A stretch of 64,000 nucleotides of DNA from Comamonas kerstersii (GTDB lineage: Bacteria > Pseudomonadota > Gammaproteobacteria > Burkholderiales > Burkholderiaceae_C). This document shows, one piece after another, positions 1-7,860 of the stretch. A program made the translations under genes and the position numbers. The DNA lies in assembly GCF_008801935.1 (NCBI RefSeq), contig NZ_VZOT01000002.1, positions 1-64,000 of the forward strand, in the 5' to 3' direction. Numbering within the stretch: the stretch's first letter is position 1; the number at the start of each line of letters is the position of its first letter. The notes under the pieces are model-generated. The model was not told the origin of the DNA. It did not search any database and saw only the letters and a list, made by a program, of their open reading frames with translations.

Positions 1-150
1 AGTCAATTCCGCCTGCAAGGCTTTCTCGACCACGGCTTTGGTCAGTTGCTTGAGCAGACCGTTCTCGCCAATGAGGTCTTCGGGCTTTTTGTAATCGGCC
101 AGCAGAGCGCTGAGCAACGCTTCAGGAATGTCGTGTTGTACAGATGTCAT
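1..150 (-). CDS. IS256-family transposase, N-terminal fragment cut by the window edge
   Basis: The first 50 codons of a Mutator/IS256-type DDE transposase are visible, starting at the ATG at 150. The translation has the typical leader of this family: a short helix followed by DLIGENGLLKQLTK, then KALQAEL. Such enzymes cut and rejoin the ends of their own element. The catalytic DDE residues lie outside the window, so activity cannot be judged. Recognition is by family resemblance of this N-terminus and by the adjacent terminal repeat. Confidence 0.75.
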   Translation of the reverse strand, partial: MTSVQHDIPEALLSALLADYKKPEDLIGENGLLKQLTKAVVEKALQAELT

Positions 151-219
151 TGCGTTTGCGGGTTTGCAGATCCAAGTCTGCGGGTTATGGGCCATTTACA
201 CAAAATTCTGTACACCCTC
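1..219 (-). mobile_element. IS256-family insertion sequence, 5' end (partial)
   Basis: This is the left end of an insertion sequence that continues beyond the window edge. It holds the transposase N-terminus and a terminal sequence that, read on the minus strand from about 219, begins GAGGGTGTACAGAATTTTG, which resembles IS256/Mutator-type terminal inverted repeats. The other end and the target duplication are not visible, so completeness cannot be judged. It lies downstream of the metallophore operon and does not appear to disrupt it. Confidence 0.7.
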
Positions 220-398: not shown

Positions 399-602
399 TC
401 AGCGCTTCACTGATTTATCGGGATCAAGAATGTTTTCCCGATAGTCTTTGAGGATTGTCGAAAGCTGCTGATCGTTGCGGGTGAAACTCCGGCAGCGATG
501 ACAAATAAGCCGGTGCTGAGCAGCCCAGAAACGGTCGATAGCGCCTGCTTCCTCGGATTGCCCCGATGTGATGTGAAAGATGTATTGCTTGCAATTCATC
601 AT
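399..602 (-). CDS. Small Cys/His-containing protein after an ECF sigma factor, putative zinc-finger anti-sigma
   Basis: This is a soluble protein of about 67 residues. It begins ATGATG at 602, and its start overlaps the stop of the upstream sigma factor in ATGA style, so the two are translationally coupled. It has Cys near the N-terminus (MMNCKQYIF) and a later H..LICHRC pattern, a plausible zinc-binding arrangement, but no membrane segment. Short proteins of this kind placed directly after an ECF sigma gene often act as anti-sigma factors. That role here is inferred from position and the Cys/His pattern; I do not recognise a named family. The longer reading from 638 would run into the sigma gene and lacks support. 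Confidence 0.6.
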   Translation of the reverse strand: MMNCKQYIFHITSGQSEEAGAIDRFWAAQHRLICHRCRSFTRNDQQLSTILKDYRENILDPDKSVKR

Positions 603-1174
603 TGACTGGCACCTCCGAACCATTTCTGGCTCAAGCACAGCTGTATTTGTTTACGGGCCCGGCTCATGCATTGCCAGTAATCGGTTTTGCTCAAGCCCAG
701 AGTGGTGCAGATTTCATCGGCATCGCACTCCAGAAACACCTTCATGCTGAACACCTGGGCAGGTTTGGTCGGTAAGTTGTGCACGCACAAATCGACCACG
801 GCAAAAAACTGATCTGTTTGCAGCCGTTCGTCTGGCCTGTGCCAGCCTGCAGGAGCGACGCCTTCTATCCAATGGCTGCGCTCATTGAACAAATAAACAT
901 CCAGATCGTCCGAAAACGCTTCGCAGTAGCTGGCCTCCCCGCTATAGCGCTTGCGTAGCCGATCTGTGATTTTGTTCTTGAGAATTCCGAACAAGTAGCG
1001 CTTGGGGTCTACAGCTTGCAGCTTGTCGAAATCGATCTCCAACAATGCAATCAACGCATCTTGCACTGCGTCCTCAGCTTCCTCGCGTGGGCTTAGATGC
1101 AGGCAAGCAAATCGAAGCATGGGCCCACGCCATTGGCATATCCACTGCGCCCTGTCGTCGATCACGAGACTCAT
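599..1174 (-). CDS. ECF-type RNA polymerase sigma factor
   Basis: This 191-residue protein has the two-domain layout of group 4 (ECF) sigma factors. Region 2 lies at about residues 15-60, with an acidic stretch EEAEDAVQDALIALLE and then KNKITDRLRKR. Region 4 lies at about 130-180, with a helix-turn-helix DADEICTTLGLSKTDYWQCMSRARKQ. It probably directs polymerase to the metallophore operon in which it is encoded, responding to metal or envelope stress. It follows the doxX gene by 11 bases and overlaps the small putative anti-sigma gene. ECF sigma genes commonly accompany bufferin operons, which supports autoregulation, but no promoter could be assigned with certainty. Confidence 0.85.
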   Translation of the reverse strand: MSLVIDDRAQWICQWRGPMLRFACLHLSPREEAEDAVQDALIALLEIDFDKLQAVDPKRYLFGILKNKITDRLRKRYSGEASYCEAFSDDLDVYLFNERSHWIEGVAPAGWHRPDERLQTDQFFAVVDLCVHNLPTKPAQVFSMKVFLECDADEICTTLGLSKTDYWQCMSRARKQIQLCLSQKWFGGASQ

Positions 1175-1185
1175 ACGGTGTATTG

Positions 1186-1698
1186 CTAGGTAGAGGAAAC
1201 TCGCTTGGATGCGCCCTGATTGGACTTTGGCGACATGCTTGCTTGCGCTGCATCCAGAGAAAATCGCCCAGGTCCTTGGGTCAGCACGGCAAACAGCATC
1301 AGTCCCAGCATGAGAGGAACCTTAAACCCCAGGCCTTCATCGGTTTCAATCGCCCGCCAACCTGCCCAGCCCAGATCAAAGTGCACGGTATAGACAGCGA
1401 CGTAGGTGATATAAATCAGGCCCAATGCCGCGAATCGGCCCTTGTACCCCAGTAGCAGCAAAAAGCCCAGCACGACCTCGCCAATACCGGCTGCCAGCCA
1501 GTTCAGTTGTGCTCCCAGGAACTGATGGGGGAAAGGAAAGTCCAGACCTGCAAACCATGCAGGAGCAGAGCCGCCAGCGCTCAATTTGGTCCAGCCGGCG
1601 AACAAAAACTCTTGCGCTGCCCATATTCTGAGTCCCAGCAGTCCCAGGTCACGCATGTGTGTCTGTGCTTTCTCGCCCCAGATAAGCAATAAATTCAT
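1186..1698 (-). CDS. DoxX-family inner-membrane protein of the metallophore operon
   Basis: This is a membrane protein of about 170 residues with four predicted transmembrane helices. It carries the DoxX signature near the N-terminus (LRIWAAQEFLFAGWTKL), followed by a GxGEVVLGFLLLLG helix. DoxX-like proteins recur in bufferin/HvfA operons, where a role in export, maturation or redox support of the peptide has been suggested but is not settled. The ATG at 1698 is chosen because it gives a normal DoxX N-terminus; it overlaps bufC by 50 bases. A second ATG at 1656 would give a shorter protein with less overlap. The next gene, the ECF sigma factor, begins 11 bases after the stop. Confidence 0.8.
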   Translation of the reverse strand: MNLLLIWGEKAQTHMRDLGLLGLRIWAAQEFLFAGWTKLSAGGSAPAWFAGLDFPFPHQFLGAQLNWLAAGIGEVVLGFLLLLGYKGRFAALGLIYITYVAVYTVHFDLGWAGWRAIETDEGLGFKVPLMLGLMLFAVLTQGPGRFSLDAAQASMSPKSNQGASKRVSST

Positions 1699-1933
1699 GA
1701 CGCAAATCTCCGTAATACGGTGATGTCCAAGCGGATTGCCGCACGAACCCTTCAATCAGCAGGCGCCACGCCTGCTCTCCCAATTGCTCTCGCAGGAATG
1801 GGAAATTGGCCTCCACCATCTGGCTGGCGCCCAGATACACCAGATACCGGTATGCACGAAGTCCTGCCAGGGTGTACCCTGCCGGCACTGTCTCGCTGCG
1901 CCCCCTCACGTAGTCATAAAAGGCGTTAGACAT
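1649..1933 (-). CDS. bufC: BufC/HvfC-like partner protein (DUF2063 N-terminal domain only)
   Basis: This 94-residue protein matches the N-terminal domain of DUF2063 proteins: LAGLRAYRYLVYLGASQMVEANFPFLREQLGE, then a helix with FVRQSAWTSPYYGDLRHEFIAYL. Partner proteins of this family bind the precursor peptide and the MNIO enzyme. The usual protein is about 250 residues, with a second domain that is absent here. There is no sign of a frameshift, because the DoxX gene begins inside its end. The gene overlaps bufB by 28 bases, showing tight coupling. It is read as a compact partner protein; the function is known for the family and inferred here. Confidence 0.8.
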   Translation of the reverse strand: MSNAFYDYVRGRSETVPAGYTLAGLRAYRYLVYLGASQMVEANFPFLREQLGEQAWRLLIEGFVRQSAWTSPYYGDLRHEFIAYLGRESTDTHA

Positions 1934-2694
1934 ATGAGTTCCTGGTTGAGTGTGTCCATAGACGGCACATCGTTATCCCACTCCAGCAGCACTTGTAGGC
2001 CATGGGTGCGCTGAAGTTGGCGGGCCATGGTCATGGTTTGCTCTTCCACGGTCTCGCTGTGGGTGTCAATGAACAGGCCAAAACGAGCATCGAACTCATG
2101 GCCAGCCACATGGATGTAACTGACTCGCGTCAGATCCACACGCGCAACAAACTCCTGCAGACTGTGTTGCCCATGGTTCTTGTAATTGACCATGATGTTG
2201 TTGAGATCCAGCAGCACACCACAGTCGCCCCATTCGGCGACAGCGCCCAAGAAGTCGGGCTCAGGGATGTCACCAATATTGGTGTACCAAGTGCTGTTCT
2301 CGATCGCAATTTGCTGCCCCAGGATGTCCTGCACCTGGCGGATACGGTCTCCCACCCGCTTGACCTCTTGCTTGGTGAAGGGGATGGGGAACAGGTCATA
2401 CAGCTGATGGGCGTCTCCACTGGCCGCCAAGTGGTCTGAATACCTGATGGTCCCCAGCTCATCCATCAAGGCGCGGACATCCCGTAAAAAACAGTGATCA
2501 ATTGCACTGTCTCCGCCCAAGTTCAGAGACACACCGTGCAGGTGCACAGGCCGGCCGGATGCTCGCAGCCTGTGCAAAGGGCTGCGATCACGTCGTATCC
2601 AGTTCTCGGGGGCAACTTCAAAGAAGTCAGCCAGAACCAGCGACATGTCCCAGTCGGCCATTTCGCGGCGATAACCCAATCCAGCCATGGCCAT
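1906..2694 (-). CDS. bufB: MNIO-family (DUF692) RiPP maturase, BufB/HvfB type
   Basis: This 262-residue TIM-barrel enzyme belongs to the multinuclear non-haem iron oxidative family, which converts Cys residues of a precursor peptide to thiooxazole or oxazolone/thioamide groups that bind copper. Likely metal ligands are all present: EVAPENW near 26-32, HGVSLNLG with H53, SDHLA with D87 and H88, IENSTWY with E132, DLNNIMVN at 163-170 and H174, HVAGHE with H195 and H199, DTHS at 210-213, and LLEWDND near the C-terminus. It starts 6 bases after the precursor gene and overlaps bufC. No residue expected for catalysis appears to be missing. The specific chemistry on this precursor is inferred. Confidence 0.9.
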   Translation of the reverse strand: MAMAGLGYRREMADWDMSLVLADFFEVAPENWIRRDRSPLHRLRASGRPVHLHGVSLNLGGDSAIDHCFLRDVRALMDELGTIRYSDHLAASGDAHQLYDLFPIPFTKQEVKRVGDRIRQVQDILGQQIAIENSTWYTNIGDIPEPDFLGAVAEWGDCGVLLDLNNIMVNYKNHGQHSLQEFVARVDLTRVSYIHVAGHEFDARFGLFIDTHSETVEEQTMTMARQLQRTHGLQVLLEWDNDVPSMDTLNQELICLTPFMTT

Positions 2695-2700
2695 GCTCCT

Positions 2701-2934
2701 TCACTTCTTGGAACAAGCAGCGTCTTTTTTGGAGCAGGCCGCATCTTTCTTGCTGCACGCACTGTCTTTTTTGCTGCACGATGCATCGCACTGGGCACCA
2801 GGTTTGCAGGTCGTTTCCTTCTTGCCGCAGGTTCCCGCGCCGCACTTTTGCTCAGCAGCGCCTGCAGCCCAGGCCGAAGAAGCAATAAGAGCAGCAGCAA
2901 TCGTTGCAACAGATTTGATGTTCAGGGCGGACAT
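2701..2934 (-). CDS. bufA: Cys-rich RiPP metallophore precursor (bufferin/HvfA-like)
   Basis: This 77-residue secreted peptide is the probable substrate of the adjacent MNIO enzyme. Residues 1-27 form a Sec-type signal peptide (NIK, hydrophobic core, cleavage near AAGAA). The mature part has eight Cys: KCGAGTCG at 30-37, C43, C49, and then C53, C60, C67 and C74 spaced exactly seven residues apart in CSKKDAA repeats. The KCGxGxCG motif resembles the EGKCG units of HvfA/BufA2 peptides, which are modified and buffer copper. The repeated CSKKDAA tail is unlike the forms I know. A TAGGAG ribosome site lies about 7 bases before the ATG at 2934. It is first in a six-gene operon. Confidence 0.85.
   Translation of the reverse strand: MSALNIKSVATIAAALIASSAWAAGAAEQKCGAGTCGKKETTCKPGAQCDASCSKKDSACSKKDAACSKKDAACSKK
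2704..2778 (-). repeat. In-frame 21-bp repeats encoding the CSKKDAA heptads of the precursor
   Basis: Three and a half in-frame 21-bp units encode CSKKDSA, CSKKDAA, CSKKDAA and CSKK. The units differ at many synonymous positions (AGC or TCC for Ser, AAA or AAG for Lys, GAC or GAT for Asp, TGC or TGT for Cys) while the peptide is nearly constant. This points to older duplications kept under selection at the protein level rather than to a recent slippage tract. Confidence 0.85.
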
Positions 2935-3060
2935 GTTTGACTCCTAGAAAATGGCATGCACAAGACGTGCACGGTGATCTAGTCGTACCGAGATGCGGAT
3001 TCCTGACAGAGTTGAGAAAAAAATTCGAGCGCTTTGTCCACCGAGGAAGGTGCGGCGGAT
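2935..3060 (-). promoter_or_regulatory. Leader and probable promoter region of the bufferin operon
   Basis: This is the only sizeable gap before bufA and must hold its promoter. On the minus strand it reads TGTCAGGAATC (about 3008-2998), then CGACTA (2985-2980), which faintly resembles ECF-type promoter elements but with unusual spacing (TGTCAG-N17-CGACTA, or GGAATC-N12-CGACTA). A short palindrome TGCAC-AAGAC-GTGCA lies in the leader. No sigma-70 promoter stands out. The stretch between here and the guaA terminator, about 3061-3225, shows no convincing gene. Confidence 0.3.
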
Positions 3061-3300: not shown

Positions 3301-4917
3301 TTACTCCCACTCAATGGTTGCTGGTGGTTTGGTGCTCACGTCGTAAGTCACGCGGTTGATGCCGCGCACTTCATTGATGATACGGCCAGACACCTTCTTG
3401 AGCAGGCCGTAAGGCAGCTCGGCCCAGTCGGCCGTCATGAAGTCGCTGGTCACCACAGCACGCAGAGCCACGACGTAGTCGTAGGTGCGGCCGTCGCCCA
3501 TCACGCCCACGCTCTTGACGGGCAGGAACACGGTGAAGGCCTGGCTGGTCAGGTCGTACCAGCTCTTGCCGGTCTTTTCATCGATCCAGTTGCGCAGCTC
3601 TTCGATGAAGATGGCGTCCGCGCGGCGCAGCAGGTCGGCGTATTCCTTCTTGACTTCACCCAGGATACGCACGCCCAGTCCGGGGCCTGGGAAGGGATGG
3701 CGATACACCATCTCGCGGGGCAGGCCCAGAGCTACGCCCAGCTCGCGCACTTCGTCCTTGAACAGGTCGCGCAGGGGTTCCAGCAGCTTCAGACCCAGCT
3801 GCTCAGGCAGACCGCCCACGTTGTGGTGGCTCTTGATGGTGACAGCCTTCTTGCTCTTGGCGCCGCCCGACTCGATCACGTCGGGGTAGATCGTACCTTG
3901 TGCCAGGAAAGTCGCGCCCTTGGAGCCTGCGGTGGCTGCCTTGAGCTTGGCGGCTTCGCTCTTGAACACATCCACAAACAGACGGCCAATGATCTTGCGC
4001 TTTTGCTCAGGTTCAGACACGCCAGCCAATTCGCCCAGGAACAGCTCGGAAGCGTCCACGCGAATCACCTTGGCGTGCAGCTTGCCTTCGAACATGTCCA
4101 TGACCATATCGCCTTCGTTCAGGCGCAGCAGACCGTGGTCCACAAACACGCAGGTCAGCTGGTCGCCAATGGCGCGGTGGATCAGCGCAGCAGCTACGGA
4201 CGAATCCACACCGCCAGACAGACCCAGAATGACTTCTTCGTCACCCACTTGTTCGCGAATCTTGGCAACTGCTTCTTCGATGTAGTCGCCCATGATCCAG
4301 TCTGCATTGGCACCGCAGATATCCAGCACAAAGCGGTTCAGCATGGCTGCGCCCTGCACGGTGTGCGTGACTTCGGGGTGGAACTGCACAGCGTAGAAGC
4401 GACGTGTTTCGTCAGCCATACCAGCGATGGGGCAGGAAGGTGTGGAGCACATCACCTTGAAGCCTTCGGGCAGCTGGGTGACCTTGTCACCGTGGCTCAT
4501 CCACACTTTGAGCATGCCGTGGCCTTCAGCGGTCACGAAGTCTTCAATGCCCTTGAGCAGTTCCGTGTGGCCGTGTGCGCGCACTTCGGCGTAGCCGAAT
4601 TCGCGGGTGTTGGAGCCTTCAACCTTGCCGCCCAGCTGGGTGGCCATGGTCTGCATGCCGTAGCAGATGCCCAGCACGGGAATGCCCAGCTCGAACACTG
4701 CGTCAGGCGCGCGGTCATCGACTTCGTAGACGGAAGCGTGGCTGCCAGAGAGGATGATGCCTTTGAGCTTGCCGTCAGCGGCAAACTCGCGCACCCATTC
4801 GCTGCTCACATCGCAGGGGTGGACTTCGCAGTACACGTGGGCTTCGCGCACGCGACGTGCGATCAGCTGTGTGACCTGCGAACCGAAGTCAAGAATCAGG
4901 ATCTTGTCATGTTGCAT
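3301..4917 (-). CDS. guaA: GMP synthase (glutamine-hydrolysing)
   Basis: This enzyme converts XMP to GMP with ATP and glutamine, the last step of guanine nucleotide synthesis in the cytosol. The 538-residue protein has a class I glutamine amidotransferase domain ([14 protein letters not shown] at the start, nucleophile in GICYGMQ near 80, His/Glu in QFHPEV), an ATP-pyrophosphatase domain with the P-loop [10 protein letters not shown] near 225, and a C-terminal dimerisation domain ending PPATIEWE. The ATG at 4917 is chosen over an in-frame TTG at 4935, since family members begin with this residue. It is separated from guaB by a toxin-antitoxin pair, which is unusual. Confidence 0.97.
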
Positions 4918-4953
4918 GGTGTTATCCAAGGGCAAGAAAAGGAGAAATCCATG

Positions 4954-5388
4954 TCAAAAATCGCCAGGTGCCAAAAGTGCAATTCCGCGCTTTCGGGCCG
5001 CAGCAATCTGGGCAGGATCAAAGGTCGCCAGCGGCACACGCAGTGATTGCGCGAGCCACAGATATGCAGCGTCGTACACGGGCAGGCCCGTATCCAGTGC
5101 CACATCCAGCACGGCTTTGTGCTGGGCAGGAGCCAGCTCGTGCAGTTCCACGCGATGGCGAATAGCTTCGAGCACACCCCACAACCCCTCGACCGAGGTC
5201 TGCGGAATACGCCCATGATTGACACCCGATGCAATCAGGTTGCAGCACTCCCACTGCCAGACATTGGGAGCTTGCGGTTCCACCTCATCACGCCGGATGC
5301 GTGCGTACAGACGCTGGGTATCAGCACTGGCATGCTCAGGCAGCAGCCAGGCGGAAGTCACGGAGACATCCAGCACAAATGCGCTCAT
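4954..5388 (-). CDS. PIN-domain toxin (VapC-like ribonuclease)
   Basis: This 144-residue PIN-domain protein is probably the toxin of a type II toxin-antitoxin pair that cleaves RNA. The acidic residues expected in the Mg2+ site are visible: D7 in VLDVSVTSAW, E47 in WQWECCN, D105 in VYDAAYLWLA, and a later D in LATFD. Its ATG overlaps the stop of the upstream antitoxin gene in ATGA form, giving coupled translation. Target RNA cannot be read from sequence. It sits between guaB and guaA, 36 bases before the latter. Confidence 0.85.
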   Translation of the reverse strand: MSAFVLDVSVTSAWLLPEHASADTQRLYARIRRDEVEPQAPNVWQWECCNLIASGVNHGRIPQTSVEGLWGVLEAIRHRVELHELAPAQHKAVLDVALDTGLPVYDAAYLWLAQSLRVPLATFDPAQIAAARKRGIALLAPGDF

Positions 5389-5645
5389 GTCTGACTCCGC
5401 CCTGTATGGCGCAGCGCCACTACAGAATCAGTAGCTTCCGGGGCACGCACAGTCTGCTGTAGCGCCTGAATTTGTTCTAACTCACGGGCAATCTGCTCGT
5501 CCGTAATCACCGGGCGACGGCGCACAGGCAGCATGCGCACCACTTCCTTGCCGTGACGGGTAATGCGCACCTCTTCTCCCTGCTCGACCAGTTCGATCAA
5601 GGCAGAAAAGCGGGTTTTGGCTTCGTAAATACCGACAGATTGCAT
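5385..5645 (-). CDS. Phd/YefM-family antitoxin
   Basis: This 86-residue antitoxin has an N-terminal Phd/YefM DNA-binding fold (MQSVGIYEAKTRFSALIELVEQGEEVRITRHGKEVVRMLP), and the C-terminal half (IARELEQIQALQQTVR) probably wraps the PIN toxin. Such proteins bind palindromes in their own promoter and repress the pair. Here a strong palindrome lies about ten bases before the start codon, together with further TCTGGTC motifs. The gene precedes the toxin, the usual order for this class. Confidence 0.87.
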   Translation of the reverse strand: MQSVGIYEAKTRFSALIELVEQGEEVRITRHGKEVVRMLPVRRRPVITDEQIARELEQIQALQQTVRAPEATDSVVALRHTGRSQT

Positions 5646-5744: not shown

Positions 5745-7214
5745 TTAGTCGGCACGGTAATTAGGTGCTTCCTTGGTGATCTGCACGTCGTGTACGTGCG
5801 ACTCACGGATACCGGCTGCGGTGATTTCCACAAACTCGGCCTTTTCGTTCATCTCAGCAATGGTCTTGCAACCGCAGTAGCCCATGGAAGCACGGATGCC
5901 ACCTGCCATCTGGTACACGATGGCAACCATGGAGCCCTTGTAAGGCACACGGCCTTCAATACCTTCGGGCACCAGCTTGTCAGCTGTGGGGTTGCCTGTA
6001 GAGGATTCCTGGAAGTAGCGGTCTGCAGAGCCTTGCTGCATGGCGCCGATGGAGCCCATGCCACGGTAGCTCTTGTAGGAGCGACCCTGGAACAGAATCA
6101 CTTCACCAGGTGCTTCTTCGGTACCAGCAAACATGCCGCCCATCATGATGGTGGATGCGCCAGCTGCCAGCGCCTTGGAGATATCACCGGAGAAGCGGAT
6201 ACCACCGTCACCAATCAGTGGCACACCTGTGCCCTTCAGGGCTTCGGCCACGTTGGAGATCGCCATGATCTGGGGTACACCCACACCGGCCACGATACGT
6301 GTGGTACAGATGGAGCCAGGGCCGATACCGACCTTCACAGCGTCAGCGCCCGCTTCCACCAGCGCCAGCGCAGCAGCGCCGGTAGCGATGTTGCCGCCAA
6401 TCACATCGATATGGGGGTAGTTTTGCTTGACCCAGCGCACGCGGTCGATCACGCCCTTGGAGTGACCGTGGGCTGTGTCCACCACAATAGCGTCCACACC
6501 AGCCTTGGCCAGCAGTTCCACACGCTCTTCCGTGCCAGCGCCCACACCCACAGCAGCGGCTACGCGCAGACGGCCAGCGGCGTCACGTGCAGCGTTGGGG
6601 AAATTGGTTTGCTTGTTGATGTCCTTGACAGTGATCAGACCCTTGAGTTCAAAGGCATCGTTGACCACCAGCAGGCGCTCGAGCTTGTGCTTGTTCAGCA
6701 GCGCCTTGGCTTCAGCAGGCGTTGTGCCTTCATGCACAGTGATCAGGCGCTCGCGGGGCGTCATGATCTCGCGCACTTTCACGTCGTAGCGTGTTTCAAA
6801 GCGGATGTCGCGGTTGGTCACAATACCCACCACCTTGCCGCCTTCCACCACAGGGAAGCCCGAGATACCACGCTCTTCAGACAGCTGCAGCACCTGCAAC
6901 ACAGTGAAGTCAGGGGTGATCACCACAGGATCAGACACCACGCCGGATTCATGGCGCTTGACCTTGAGCACTTCAGCCGCTTGTTGCTCGGCCGTCATGT
7001 TCTTGTGAATAACGCCAATGCCGCCTTCTTGGGCAATGGCGATCGCCAGACGCGCTTCAGTCACGGTGTCCATGGCCGCAGAGACCAGTGGCAGGTTCAA
7101 CGTGATGTTGCGAGTGAACTTGGTAGAAAGAGAAACGTCCTTGGGCAGGACTTCGGAGTAGGCGGGAACGAGCAGAACGTCGTCAAAGGTCAGTGCTTTT
7201 CCGAGAAGGCGCAT
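5745..7214 (-). CDS. guaB: Inosine-5'-monophosphate dehydrogenase
   Basis: This enzyme oxidises IMP to XMP with NAD+, the committed step to GMP. The 489-residue protein begins [20 protein letters not shown] and shows the catalytic barrel split by two CBS domains (about 90-205). The active-site loop [18 protein letters not shown] carries the nucleophilic Cys, and the mobile flap has the RYFQE element. The start at 7214 is fixed by the family N-terminus; the open frame upstream to 7325 is not coding. guaA lies downstream after the toxin-antitoxin pair, and a terminator separates guaB from that pair. Confidence 0.97.
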
Positions 7215-7311
7215 TGTGAAGGCTCCAAAAGAGGGATTGTAGCTTCGTCTGGCGGCTCCCGTGCCAATCACGCAACAAGAAACCTTGCAAGCCAGAGCTA
7301 CACTGCCAGTC

Positions 7312-7860
7312 ATGAAAACGCTCAAACTTCTTCTTGCAGCAACGCTAAGTGTTTGCAGTTGCAGTGTTTTTGCACAATGGCAGTGGATAGATGCTTCAGG
7401 GCAAAAAGTCTATAGCGATCGTCCTCCGCCCGCACACATCGCGCCACCACAGATCCTCAAGCGCCCGGGCAGCAGCGCGCCTGCCGCGCCCAGCGTGCGC
7501 TATCCCAGCGCTGAGGGCGCGACAGCTGCGCCCGTAGCAACGCCTGCTGTAGTGTCAGAACCTGCTTCTGAAACAAGCACTGTGCAGGCAGCACCCGAAA
7601 CATCAGCACCTGATCAGGACAAAGCCCGGGAAGCGGCTCAACGCAAGGCCGAAGAAGACGAACGTAAGAAGCACGAAGCCAGGCAGGCCGAGGTTCGCCG
7701 CAGCAACTGCCAGCGCGCCCGGGCAATGCAGGCTTCGCTGCAGTCCGGTGCACTGCATGCCTATGTGAATGAAAAAGGGGAACGCGGCTTGATGACGGAC
7801 GCGCAGCGCCAGGCAGAACTGCAGCGCGCCCAGGCTGCCATCAAGGACAATTGCAGATAA
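7312..7860 (+). CDS. DUF4124-containing secreted protein
   Basis: This exported protein has 182 residues. It has a signal peptide ([21 protein letters not shown]), then a DUF4124 segment ([19 protein letters not shown]), a Pro/Ala-rich linker, and a charged helical C-terminal half with a [22 protein letters not shown] coiled-coil-like stretch. DUF4124 is common in Gram-negative periplasmic proteins of unknown role. The ATG at 7312 is chosen because it begins the signal peptide. It is divergent from guaB, with about 100 bases between them, which must hold both promoters. Confidence 0.85.

What the first reader, a model, noticed from the sequence alone, without database searches (positions are those of the whole stretch)
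399..2934. Six-gene copper-metallophore (bufferin/HvfA-type) operon with its own ECF sigma and small anti-sigma candidate
A Cys-rich secreted precursor, an MNIO maturase with its expected metal ligands in place, a DUF2063 partner, a DoxX protein, an ECF sigma factor and a small Cys/His protein are read in one direction with overlaps or gaps under 12 bases. Known families make thiooxazole or thioamide peptides that sequester copper. The exact composition, with both regulator genes at the 3' end, is a compact self-regulating cassette.
Basis: partly seen in the sequence, partly recalled or inferred. Interest (0 to 1): 0.9.

Follow-up and report, generated by a model that had tools for sequence, protein, structure and literature searches.

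The report
Copper-peptide operon with cut-down partner
This is a probably self-regulated six-gene operon that likely makes a secreted copper-binding peptide by modifying its cysteines; operons of this composition are already known, but this one belongs to a small family whose helper protein lacks the half thought to recognise the peptide, which gives a natural test of what that half is for.

Summary
Observation confirmed. Six minus-strand ORFs (2934 to 399), gaps of at most 11 nt or overlaps: Cys-rich precursor, MNIO, DUF2063 protein, DoxX, ECF sigma, small zinc-type anti-sigma. The headline is not new: Neisseria has the same six gene kinds in a sigmaE-autoregulated operon with MseR; its peptide carries 5-thiooxazoles and binds Cu.

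The DUF2063 partner is 94 aa; 84 untruncated comparison partners have 204-255 aa from domain start. Profiles of their C-terminal (RRE) half recover 42 of 42 held-out partners but nothing in 35 clade loci. It is no local decay: 35 of 35 distinct loci of one MNIO clade have the short partner, 33 of 33 with enough upstream a C-[SGA]-K-K-repeat precursor; one change on the tree; omega about 0.14 in Comamonas. A promoter GTCAGG-N14-18-CGAC precedes 22 of 22 sigma-bearing operons with enough upstream.

Verdict: new variant of the captophorin (bufferin/oxazolin) kind, apparently RRE-less, separating two roles ascribed to the partner: substrate recognition and iron-cofactor activation. Chemistry, copper binding and regulation are inferred, not shown.

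The parts
2701..2934 (-). Precursor peptide, 77 aa: Sec-type signal sequence, box KCGAGTCGKK, then CSKK repeats; 8 Cys, 5 of them in C-[SG]-K-K
   Evidence: no Pfam or NCBIfam match at E up to 1
1906..2694 (-). MNIO maturase, 262 aa (most relatives start at the second Met, 2688); motif LLEWDND
   Evidence: PF05114 1.6e-69; HvfB model 233.5 bits against cut-off 360; profile of seven genus MNIOs matches PDB 3bww at 2.7e-52; H53 H88 E132 D163 H195 D210 H212 E238 D240 invariant in 24 clade and 85 comparison MNIOs
1649..1933 (-). DUF2063-only partner protein, 94 aa, no RRE domain
   Evidence: PF09836 1.4e-12; HvfC model positions 3-90 of 237; clade profile matches PDB 3dee residues 15-93 of 249; no C-terminal-half match in the locus
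1186..1698 (-). DoxX/HvfX-type membrane protein, 170 aa; start lies inside the partner gene
   Evidence: PF07681 4.1e-14; HvfX model 77.6 bits against cut-off 80; same kind of overlap, 38-65 nt by first ATG, in the 21 relatives measured
599..1174 (-). ECF sigma factor, 191 aa
   Evidence: Sigma70 regions 2 and 4; TIGR02943 153.3 bits against cut-off 162.2; 56/173 identical to the gonococcal sigma
399..602 (-). MseR-like anti-sigma, 67 aa; C4, H30-x3-C34-x2-C37
   Evidence: NF052368 antisigmaE 1.4e-5, 24.8 bits against cut-off 50; positions counted equal those of NMB2145
2981..3008 (-). ECF-type promoter TGTCAGGAAT-N13-CGACT, 47 nt before the precursor ATG
   Evidence: GTCAGG-N14-18-CGAC conserved in the clade
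2955..2973 (-). Short hairpin in the presumed 5' leader, function unknown
   Evidence: a hairpin in 21 of 25 leaders against 46% of shuffles

Best explanation
A copper-responsive RiPP operon of the captophorin kind in a variant form. In the resting cell the MseR-like zinc protein holds the ECF sigma. A metal or thiol stress releases it (inferred), and the sigma transcribes its own operon from TGTCAGGAAT-N13-CGAC. The precursor is made with its signal sequence; the MNIO, bound to the 94-aa DUF2063 protein, converts Cys of the C-[SGA]-K-K repeats to 5-thiooxazoles (about -4 Da each) before Sec export, and the peptide buffers Cu in the periplasm. Because no RRE is encoded in the locus, substrate recognition must lie in the MNIO-DUF2063 pair itself, probably reading the conserved signal sequence and/or the C-G-A-G-x-C-[GS]-K-K box, while the DUF2063 domain keeps the partner's other reported role, making the iron cofactor competent. 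Shown by sequence: gene content, lack of an RRE in the locus, promoter pattern, coupled change of precursor, MNIO and partner. Inferred: chemistry, metal, inducing signal, actual regulation, recognition.
For: Families; nine ligand-type residues invariant in 24 clade and 85 comparison MNIOs. Partner 86-97 aa from domain start in 35 of 35 distinct clade loci against 204-255 aa in 84 untruncated comparison loci. Profiles of the C-terminal half of comparison partners recover 27 of 27 and 15 of 15 held-out partners and find nothing at E up to 1 in 4011 frames of 35 clade loci. Twelve clade loci (11 distinct) were fetched after the pattern was noted: 12 of 12 short with C-[SGA]-K-K precursors. Tree: one change, clade SH-aLRT 99. 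Partner omega 0.137 (mean of 15 Comamonas pairs, codons 11-76), MNIO 0.130. doxX starts 38-65 nt before the partner stop in the 21 relatives measured. 172 of 210 Cys of 32 precursors in C-[SGA]-K-K, no [EDGAS]GKCG. Promoter in 22 of 22 sigma-bearing loci and 3 of 10 loci without a sigma in the held stretch (hypergeometric 3.6e-5; 1.1e-4 without L146); 34 of 42000 resampled upstream regions match. HvfC is needed for product and for the mixed-valent iron state; characterised MNIO-PME1 systems install 5-thiooxazoles.
Against: No experiment on a clade member was found. HvfA without its signal is hardly modified and the partner's RRE is thought to bind the leader, which argues that an RRE should matter. 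FonBC did not process substrates with a charged residue after Cys; here Cys is mostly followed by Ser/Gly/Ala, so transfer of chemistry is plausible but untested. Asn after the catalytic Asp is not unique to the clade (19 of 85 comparison MNIOs), nor is Trp before it (7 of 85). Three loci carry the promoter but show no sigma within the held stretch. Meningococcal sigmaE expression did not change with the oxidants tried, and the inducer here is unknown.
Confidence: 0.65

Rival explanations
1. An ordinary captophorin operon: the short partner is of no consequence, and recognition works as in Neisseria or Haemophilus, with the RRE function supplied in trans by an unlinked host protein.
For: RRE domains diverge strongly in sequence, so one encoded elsewhere could escape profile searches (inference). 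FonA residues before the core could each be changed to Ala without loss, so RRE contacts seem loose.
Against: PF05114 and PF09836 each match once in the own genome, and the HvfC model finds nothing there beyond the short partner except a match at E 0.23. None of 35 clade loci shows a C-terminal-half match in the stretch held.
Confidence: 0.15
2. The 94-aa protein is only a structural subunit; the MNIO of this clade recognises substrate and works without a true partner.
For: The MNIO carries about 20 clade-diagnostic residues, e.g. D36 where 84 of 85 others have Gly and S213 where 77 of 85 have Gly; MovX appears to work without a separate partner, though it carries a winged-helix domain of its own.
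Against: In Comamonas the partner is under purifying selection like the MNIO's, and it is present in 35 of 35 loci; HvfB without HvfC makes no product.
Confidence: 0.15
3. The modified peptide serves another stress (gold, thiol or oxidative) rather than copper, or the modification is not 5-thiooxazole.
For: The related gig genes are named for gold; the meningococcal sigmaE also controls msrA/msrB.
Against: Characterised MNIO-PME1 products carry 5-thiooxazoles and generally bind Cu; gig-lacZ is induced by copper.
Confidence: 0.2
4. The operon is a decaying or recently truncated copy with a non-functional partner.
For: It lies near the first bases of its contig, and only 7 of 53 genomes of the genus carry the clade type.
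Against: Same short length in Burkholderiales, Methylophilaceae, a Neisseriaceae bacterium and an Oceanospirillaceae MAG; low omega in Comamonas relatives; all six frames intact here.
Confidence: 0.03

Closest known systems
N. meningitidis NMB2140-NMB2145 / N. gonorrhoeae ngo operon (gonophorin, rpoE, MseR)
   Same: Same six gene kinds, one operon, ECF sigma and ZAS anti-sigma last, autoregulated; promoter GTMAGBWTT-N12/13-CGTCTAAH resembles TGTCAGGAAT-N13-CGAC
   Different: DoxX comes first there; precursor has EGKCG repeats; partner has DUF2063 and RRE (PDB 3dee, 249 aa); MNIO motif ERDFNF; MNIO identity 106/269
Captophorins (fontiphorin, oxazolin) and the Buf_EGKCG family
   Same: Secreted Cys-rich precursor, MNIO, DUF2063 protein; DoxX in many
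   Different: No EGKCG; C-[SGA]-K-K repeats; no RRE; the site equivalent by motif to FonB Phe250 is Asn, preceded by Trp
Bufferin 1 (DUF2282) and gigPABT of Cupriavidus metallidurans with rpoQ/rsqA
   Same: MNIO, DUF2063, DoxX and precursor core; ECF sigma and putative anti-sigma nearby
   Different: DUF2282 precursor; divergent sigma; predicted membrane anti-sigma; DUF2063 protein with a 258-aa frame
PME-type 2 partners (DUF2063-like, often short)
   Same: Many are too short for a full RRE
   Different: They miss the Pfam DUF2063 signature and go with precursors without signal peptide; ours has the signature over its cut-off (48.1 against 27.2 bits) and a Sec-type precursor

Membership tests
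Captophorin / MNIO-PME1 copper RiPP | MNIO enzyme with conserved metal ligand-type residues | tested here: met
   PF05114 1.6e-69; H53 H88 E132 D163 H195 D210 H212 E238 D240 in 100% of 24 clade and 85 other MNIOs. Which of these bind Fe is recalled, not tested
Captophorin / MNIO-PME1 copper RiPP | PME1 partner = DUF2063 domain fused to RRE | tested here: not met
   DUF2063 present; C-terminal half absent
Captophorin / MNIO-PME1 copper RiPP | Cys-rich precursor with Sec signal peptide | tested here: inconclusive
   Cys-rich, with a typical N-terminal pattern in the 21 precursors first aligned; no signal-peptide predictor was available
Captophorin / MNIO-PME1 copper RiPP | 5-thiooxazole on Cys and Cu binding | not testable with these tools
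   needs mass spectrometry, UV, NMR and metal assays
Buf_EGKCG / oxazolin precursors | EGKCG repeats | tested here: not met
   no [EDGAS]GKCG in 32 precursors; 172 of 210 Cys in C-[SGA]-K-K
Bufferin 1 (DUF2282) | DUF2282 match | tested here: not met
   no Pfam family at E up to 1
NCBIfam HvfB, BufB, HvfC, HvfX equivalogs | score over curated cut-off | tested here: not met
   233.5/360, 199.4/310, 60.1/142, 77.6/80 bits
Neisserial sigmaE/MseR autoregulated operon | same six gene kinds in one direction | tested here: met
   the place of DoxX differs
Neisserial sigmaE/MseR autoregulated operon | anti-sigma with Cys4 and His30-x3-Cys34-x2-Cys37 | tested here: met
   same numbering in window protein as in NMB2145
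Neisserial sigmaE/MseR autoregulated operon | own sigma transcribes the operon | tested here: inconclusive
   conserved promoter and its link to the sigma gene; no transcription data
PME-type 2 partner | lacks the Pfam DUF2063 signature | tested here: not met
   PF09836 48.1 bits, cut-off 27.2

The most novel reading that the evidence does not exclude
A clade of copper-RiPP systems has dispensed with the RRE: the MNIO with a bare DUF2063 domain recognises a signal sequence and/or a C-G-A-G-x-C-[GS]-K-K box directly and modifies C-[SGA]-K-K cysteines, so that the two roles ascribed to the partner protein (reading the substrate, priming the iron cluster) are separated by nature.
Probability: 0.5. 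Interest if true: 0.75.

Novelty: new variant of a known kind. Interest (0 to 1): 0.6.

Why it matters
Recent papers describe the usual partner of MNIO enzymes as DUF2063 plus a full or partial RRE, tie Sec-type precursors to DUF2063-signature partners of narrow, full length, and credit the partner with both substrate binding and setting the active mixed-valent iron state. A 94-aa, RRE-free partner that is under selection in relatives and serves a Sec-type precursor departs from that picture and allows a direct test of which domain does what. It also gives a compact maturation set (precursor, 262-aa enzyme, 94-aa partner) that would suit cell-free work. The C-[SGA]-K-K repeat is neither EGKCG nor DUF2282; whether it falls in the 'Cys-Lys' group of PMC13097082 could not be judged without its supplement.

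Tried and rejected
Rejected: (a) that the six-gene composition is itself new: Neisseria has it. (b) A frameshift that hides an RRE: doxX starts inside the partner gene in the 21 relatives measured (L070 and L092 not measurable), and profiles of the C-terminal half find nothing in any of 4011 frames of 35 clade loci. (c) That LLEWDND marks the clade alone: EWDNDVP also occurs in one long-type locus, L036, and Asn after the Asp in 19 of 85 comparison MNIOs. (d) Plasmid or phage carriage: 332 plasmid records hold MNIO relatives, all under 60% identity (best row 39%), and no relative was confirmed in viral contigs. (e) A wide sigma regulon: GTCAGGA-N14-16-CGAC has 4 matches in the own genome against 9 for the reversed pattern, and only the operon copy has the AAT extension; an earlier pattern had a wrong spacing and missed the promoter. 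(f) A conserved 5' hairpin: 21 of 25 leaders against 46% of shuffles, mean z -1.35; the alignment was too shaky for a covariation count, so it stays an aside. (g) Signal-sequence conservation (mean identity 0.57 among 24 distinct 16-residue cores) is suggestive only; no control set was run. (h) One listed DUF2063 frame outside the clade is short, 144 aa in G156: its MNIO frame is broken as well, in a fragmented genome (L148), so it was not counted either way. The comparison partners are the best-scoring loci of their searches, not a random sample.

Literature: papers were seen as search listings, outlines with abstract, passages or named sections, none in full.
Full report
What is there. Six ORFs lie on the minus strand from 2934 to 399 with gaps of 6 and 11 nt and overlaps of 28, 50 and 4 nt. 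Pfam and NCBIfam identify the MNIO, DUF2063 protein, DoxX protein and ECF sigma, and give a weak anti-sigmaE match for the last gene; the precursor matches no model at E up to 1. The last protein is best read as 67 aa from 602. Its Cys4, His30, Cys34 and Cys37, counted, fall on the positions that were mutated in the meningococcal anti-sigma NMB2145.

What is already known. NMB2140-NMB2145 of N. meningitidis is a six-gene, sigmaE-autoregulated operon with the anti-sigma downstream of rpoE (passages). In a N. gonorrhoeae record I found DoxX, an EGKCG precursor, MNIO, a long DUF2063 protein, sigma and an MseR match in one direction; window proteins are 106/269 (MNIO), 56/173 (sigma) and 14/50 (anti-sigma) identical in local alignments. 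Its product carries 5-thiooxazoles and binds copper (passages).

What is unusual. The DUF2063 protein is 94 aa. It matches HvfC model positions 3-90 of 237, and the clade profile matches PDB 3dee at residues 15-93 of 249. In the crystal paper the N-terminal domain of that protein runs to residue 116, a loop follows (117-137) and the rest begins at 138, so the short form ends some 20 residues before the end of that N-terminal domain. In a scan of 369 genomes of the class with the short protein as query, 72 genomes, the own included, matched at E 1e-5; the own open frame is 107 aa and the other 72 places listed have 254 aa or more. No second HvfC-like sequence was found in the own genome apart from a match at E 0.23. 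As a control I built profiles from the part after the DUF2063 domain in 86 comparison partners: trained on half, they recover 27 of 27 and 15 of 15 of the other half; trained on all, they find nothing at E up to 1 in 4011 frames of 35 clade loci.

It is a clade, not an accident. In the genus, 8 of 53 genomes have an MNIO relative; 7, the own genome included, have the short-partner operon and one (L009) the long type. A scan of species genomes with the genus MNIOs gave 20 loci in Comamonas, Aquabacterium, Rhodoferax, Oxalicibacterium, Methylophilus, Methylobacillus, a Neisseriaceae bacterium, several less precisely named Burkholderiales or proteobacterial MAGs and an Oceanospirillaceae MAG. Twelve more came from a family scan made after the pattern was noted, and all 12 have a short partner and a C-[SGA]-K-K precursor; one of them, L137, repeats L076. 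Of 41 rows, 35 are distinct: 35 of 35 have a partner of 86-97 aa from domain start, 34 of 35 the [IVL]LEWDN pattern (L146 does not show it), and 33 of 33 with at least 700 nt upstream an ORF with two or more C-[SGA]-K-K before the MNIO. Comparison loci (L009-L039, L041-L069, L093-L119, the best-scoring of their searches): 84 long partners of 204-255 aa from domain start and one cut by a contig end; L049 and L051 were dropped for lack of an MNIO match. The MNIO tree of 108 rows (the cut row left out) needs one change between short and long, SH-aLRT 99; it is a quick tree and warns that long branches meet. Outside the clade identity falls to about 45%.

Selection. Among six Comamonas loci the partner has mean omega 0.137 over codons 11-76 and the MNIO 0.130 (15 pairs each). 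doxX starts 38-65 nt before the partner stop, by its first ATG, in the 21 relatives measured. DoxX itself is not universal: L070, L092, L139 and L147 show none in the stretch held.

Coupled changes. In the 27 nearest long-type loci (L093-L119) a precursor candidate was printed for 24; 23 have KCG-type motifs such as EGKCG or DGKCG, the L110 candidate is not a convincing precursor, and L097, L103 and L108 gave none. In 32 clade precursors (L144 was left out as near-identical to L143) there is no [EDGAS]GKCG, and 172 of 210 Cys lie in C-[SGA]-K-K. FonB Phe250, next to the proposed base Asp249, is one of the residues that govern selectivity around the modified Cys. By motif the clade has Asn there in 24 of 24; FonB itself was not aligned, so this equivalence is inferred. 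Asn also occurs in 19 of 85 comparison MNIOs. The C-terminal tail after that Asp is 22 residues (median) against 33.

Regulation. GTCAGG-N14-18-CGAC, mostly TGTCAGGAAT-N12/13-CGAC, sits 46-70 nt before the precursor ATG in 18 of the 21 upstream regions first examined; 34 of 42000 Markov-resampled regions match. In the distinct set, searched up to 1200 nt before the MNIO, it occurs in 22 of 22 loci with the sigma and enough upstream sequence, and in 3 of 10 with no sigma in the stretch held (P = 3.6e-5; 1.1e-4 if L146, whose gene order differs, is left out; relatedness is ignored). In 26 of the 26 promoter-bearing rows given to a precursor start follows within 46-72 nt. Some later loci have GTCAGGTT instead of GTCAGGAA. 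L080-L082 lack this promoter and have a distant ECF sigma on the other strand, just upstream by my conversion of the coordinates. In the own genome only the operon copy has the AAT extension among 4 matches. With the neisserial precedent this makes autoregulation likely, but no transcript was measured.

Mechanism. HvfB needs HvfC to make product and to reach the mixed-valent iron state, and HvfA without its signal sequence is hardly modified. FonA residues before the core could each be replaced, so RRE contacts seem loose, and DUF2063-linked RREs showed no specific recognition motif in their precursors. An RRE-less partner that keeps the DUF2063 domain is compatible with a model in which that domain primes the metal site and the enzyme pair reads the signal sequence or the C-G-A-G-x-C-[GS]-K-K box directly; this is inference.

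Distribution. The clade is rare and patchy: 12 of 399 family genomes at E 1e-80, 3 of 399 order genomes below E 1e-100, the own genome alone of 398 in the phylum draw at E 1e-70; each count includes the own genome and the draws overlap. The window MNIO is nearest to Aquabacterium (74%), whereas the other Comamonas copies (65-66% to the window) group with a Neisseriaceae sequence, which suggests separate acquisition.

Verdict. Searches behind 'undescribed': and the passages and sections listed under Tried and rejected; supplements were not seen.

Noticed in passing
window 4954-5388 and 5385-5645, minus strand: A Phd/YefM antitoxin (3.6e-12) and a PIN-like ORF (0.0014, below cut-off) overlap by 4 nt and sit between a guaA-like ORF (3301-4935) and a guaB-like ORF (5745-7325); the gua names are recalled from the translations, not searched.
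   Followed up: partly
window 1-195, minus strand: The contig starts inside an ORF whose translated start resembles an IS256-type transposase (recalled); Pfam and a plasmid search gave nothing.
   Followed up: partly
L003-L008, between precursor and MNIO: Comamonas relatives carry an extra small secreted-looking gene between precursor and MNIO; the L004 copy matches DUF4148 at 1.1e-12. The window operon has no room for it.
   Followed up: partly
L080, L081, L082: Methylophilus, Oxalicibacterium and Methylobacillus loci show no linked sigma/MseR pair and no GTCAGG promoter, but have a distant ECF sigma on the opposite strand just upstream, recalling the gig/rpoQ arrangement.
   Followed up: partly
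window 2955-2973 and leaders of relatives: A short hairpin (GTGCAC...GTGCAC or a changed but still paired version) follows the -10 element in 21 of 25 leaders; 46% of shuffles also have one.
   Followed up: partly
L136 and L147 (same genome G188): One genome carries two operon copies of the clade, with different precursors.
   Followed up: no
L093-L096, L098, L100, L102, L104 against L101, L105, L106, L110, L111, L113, L114, L116, L118, L119: Long-type relatives show two other layouts of the same parts: DoxX first and sigma last, or sigma-MseR upstream of the MNIO.
   Followed up: no
L148 (G156, C5): A DUF2063 frame of only 144 aa beside a broken MNIO frame in a fragmented genome; outside the clade.
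   Followed up: partly
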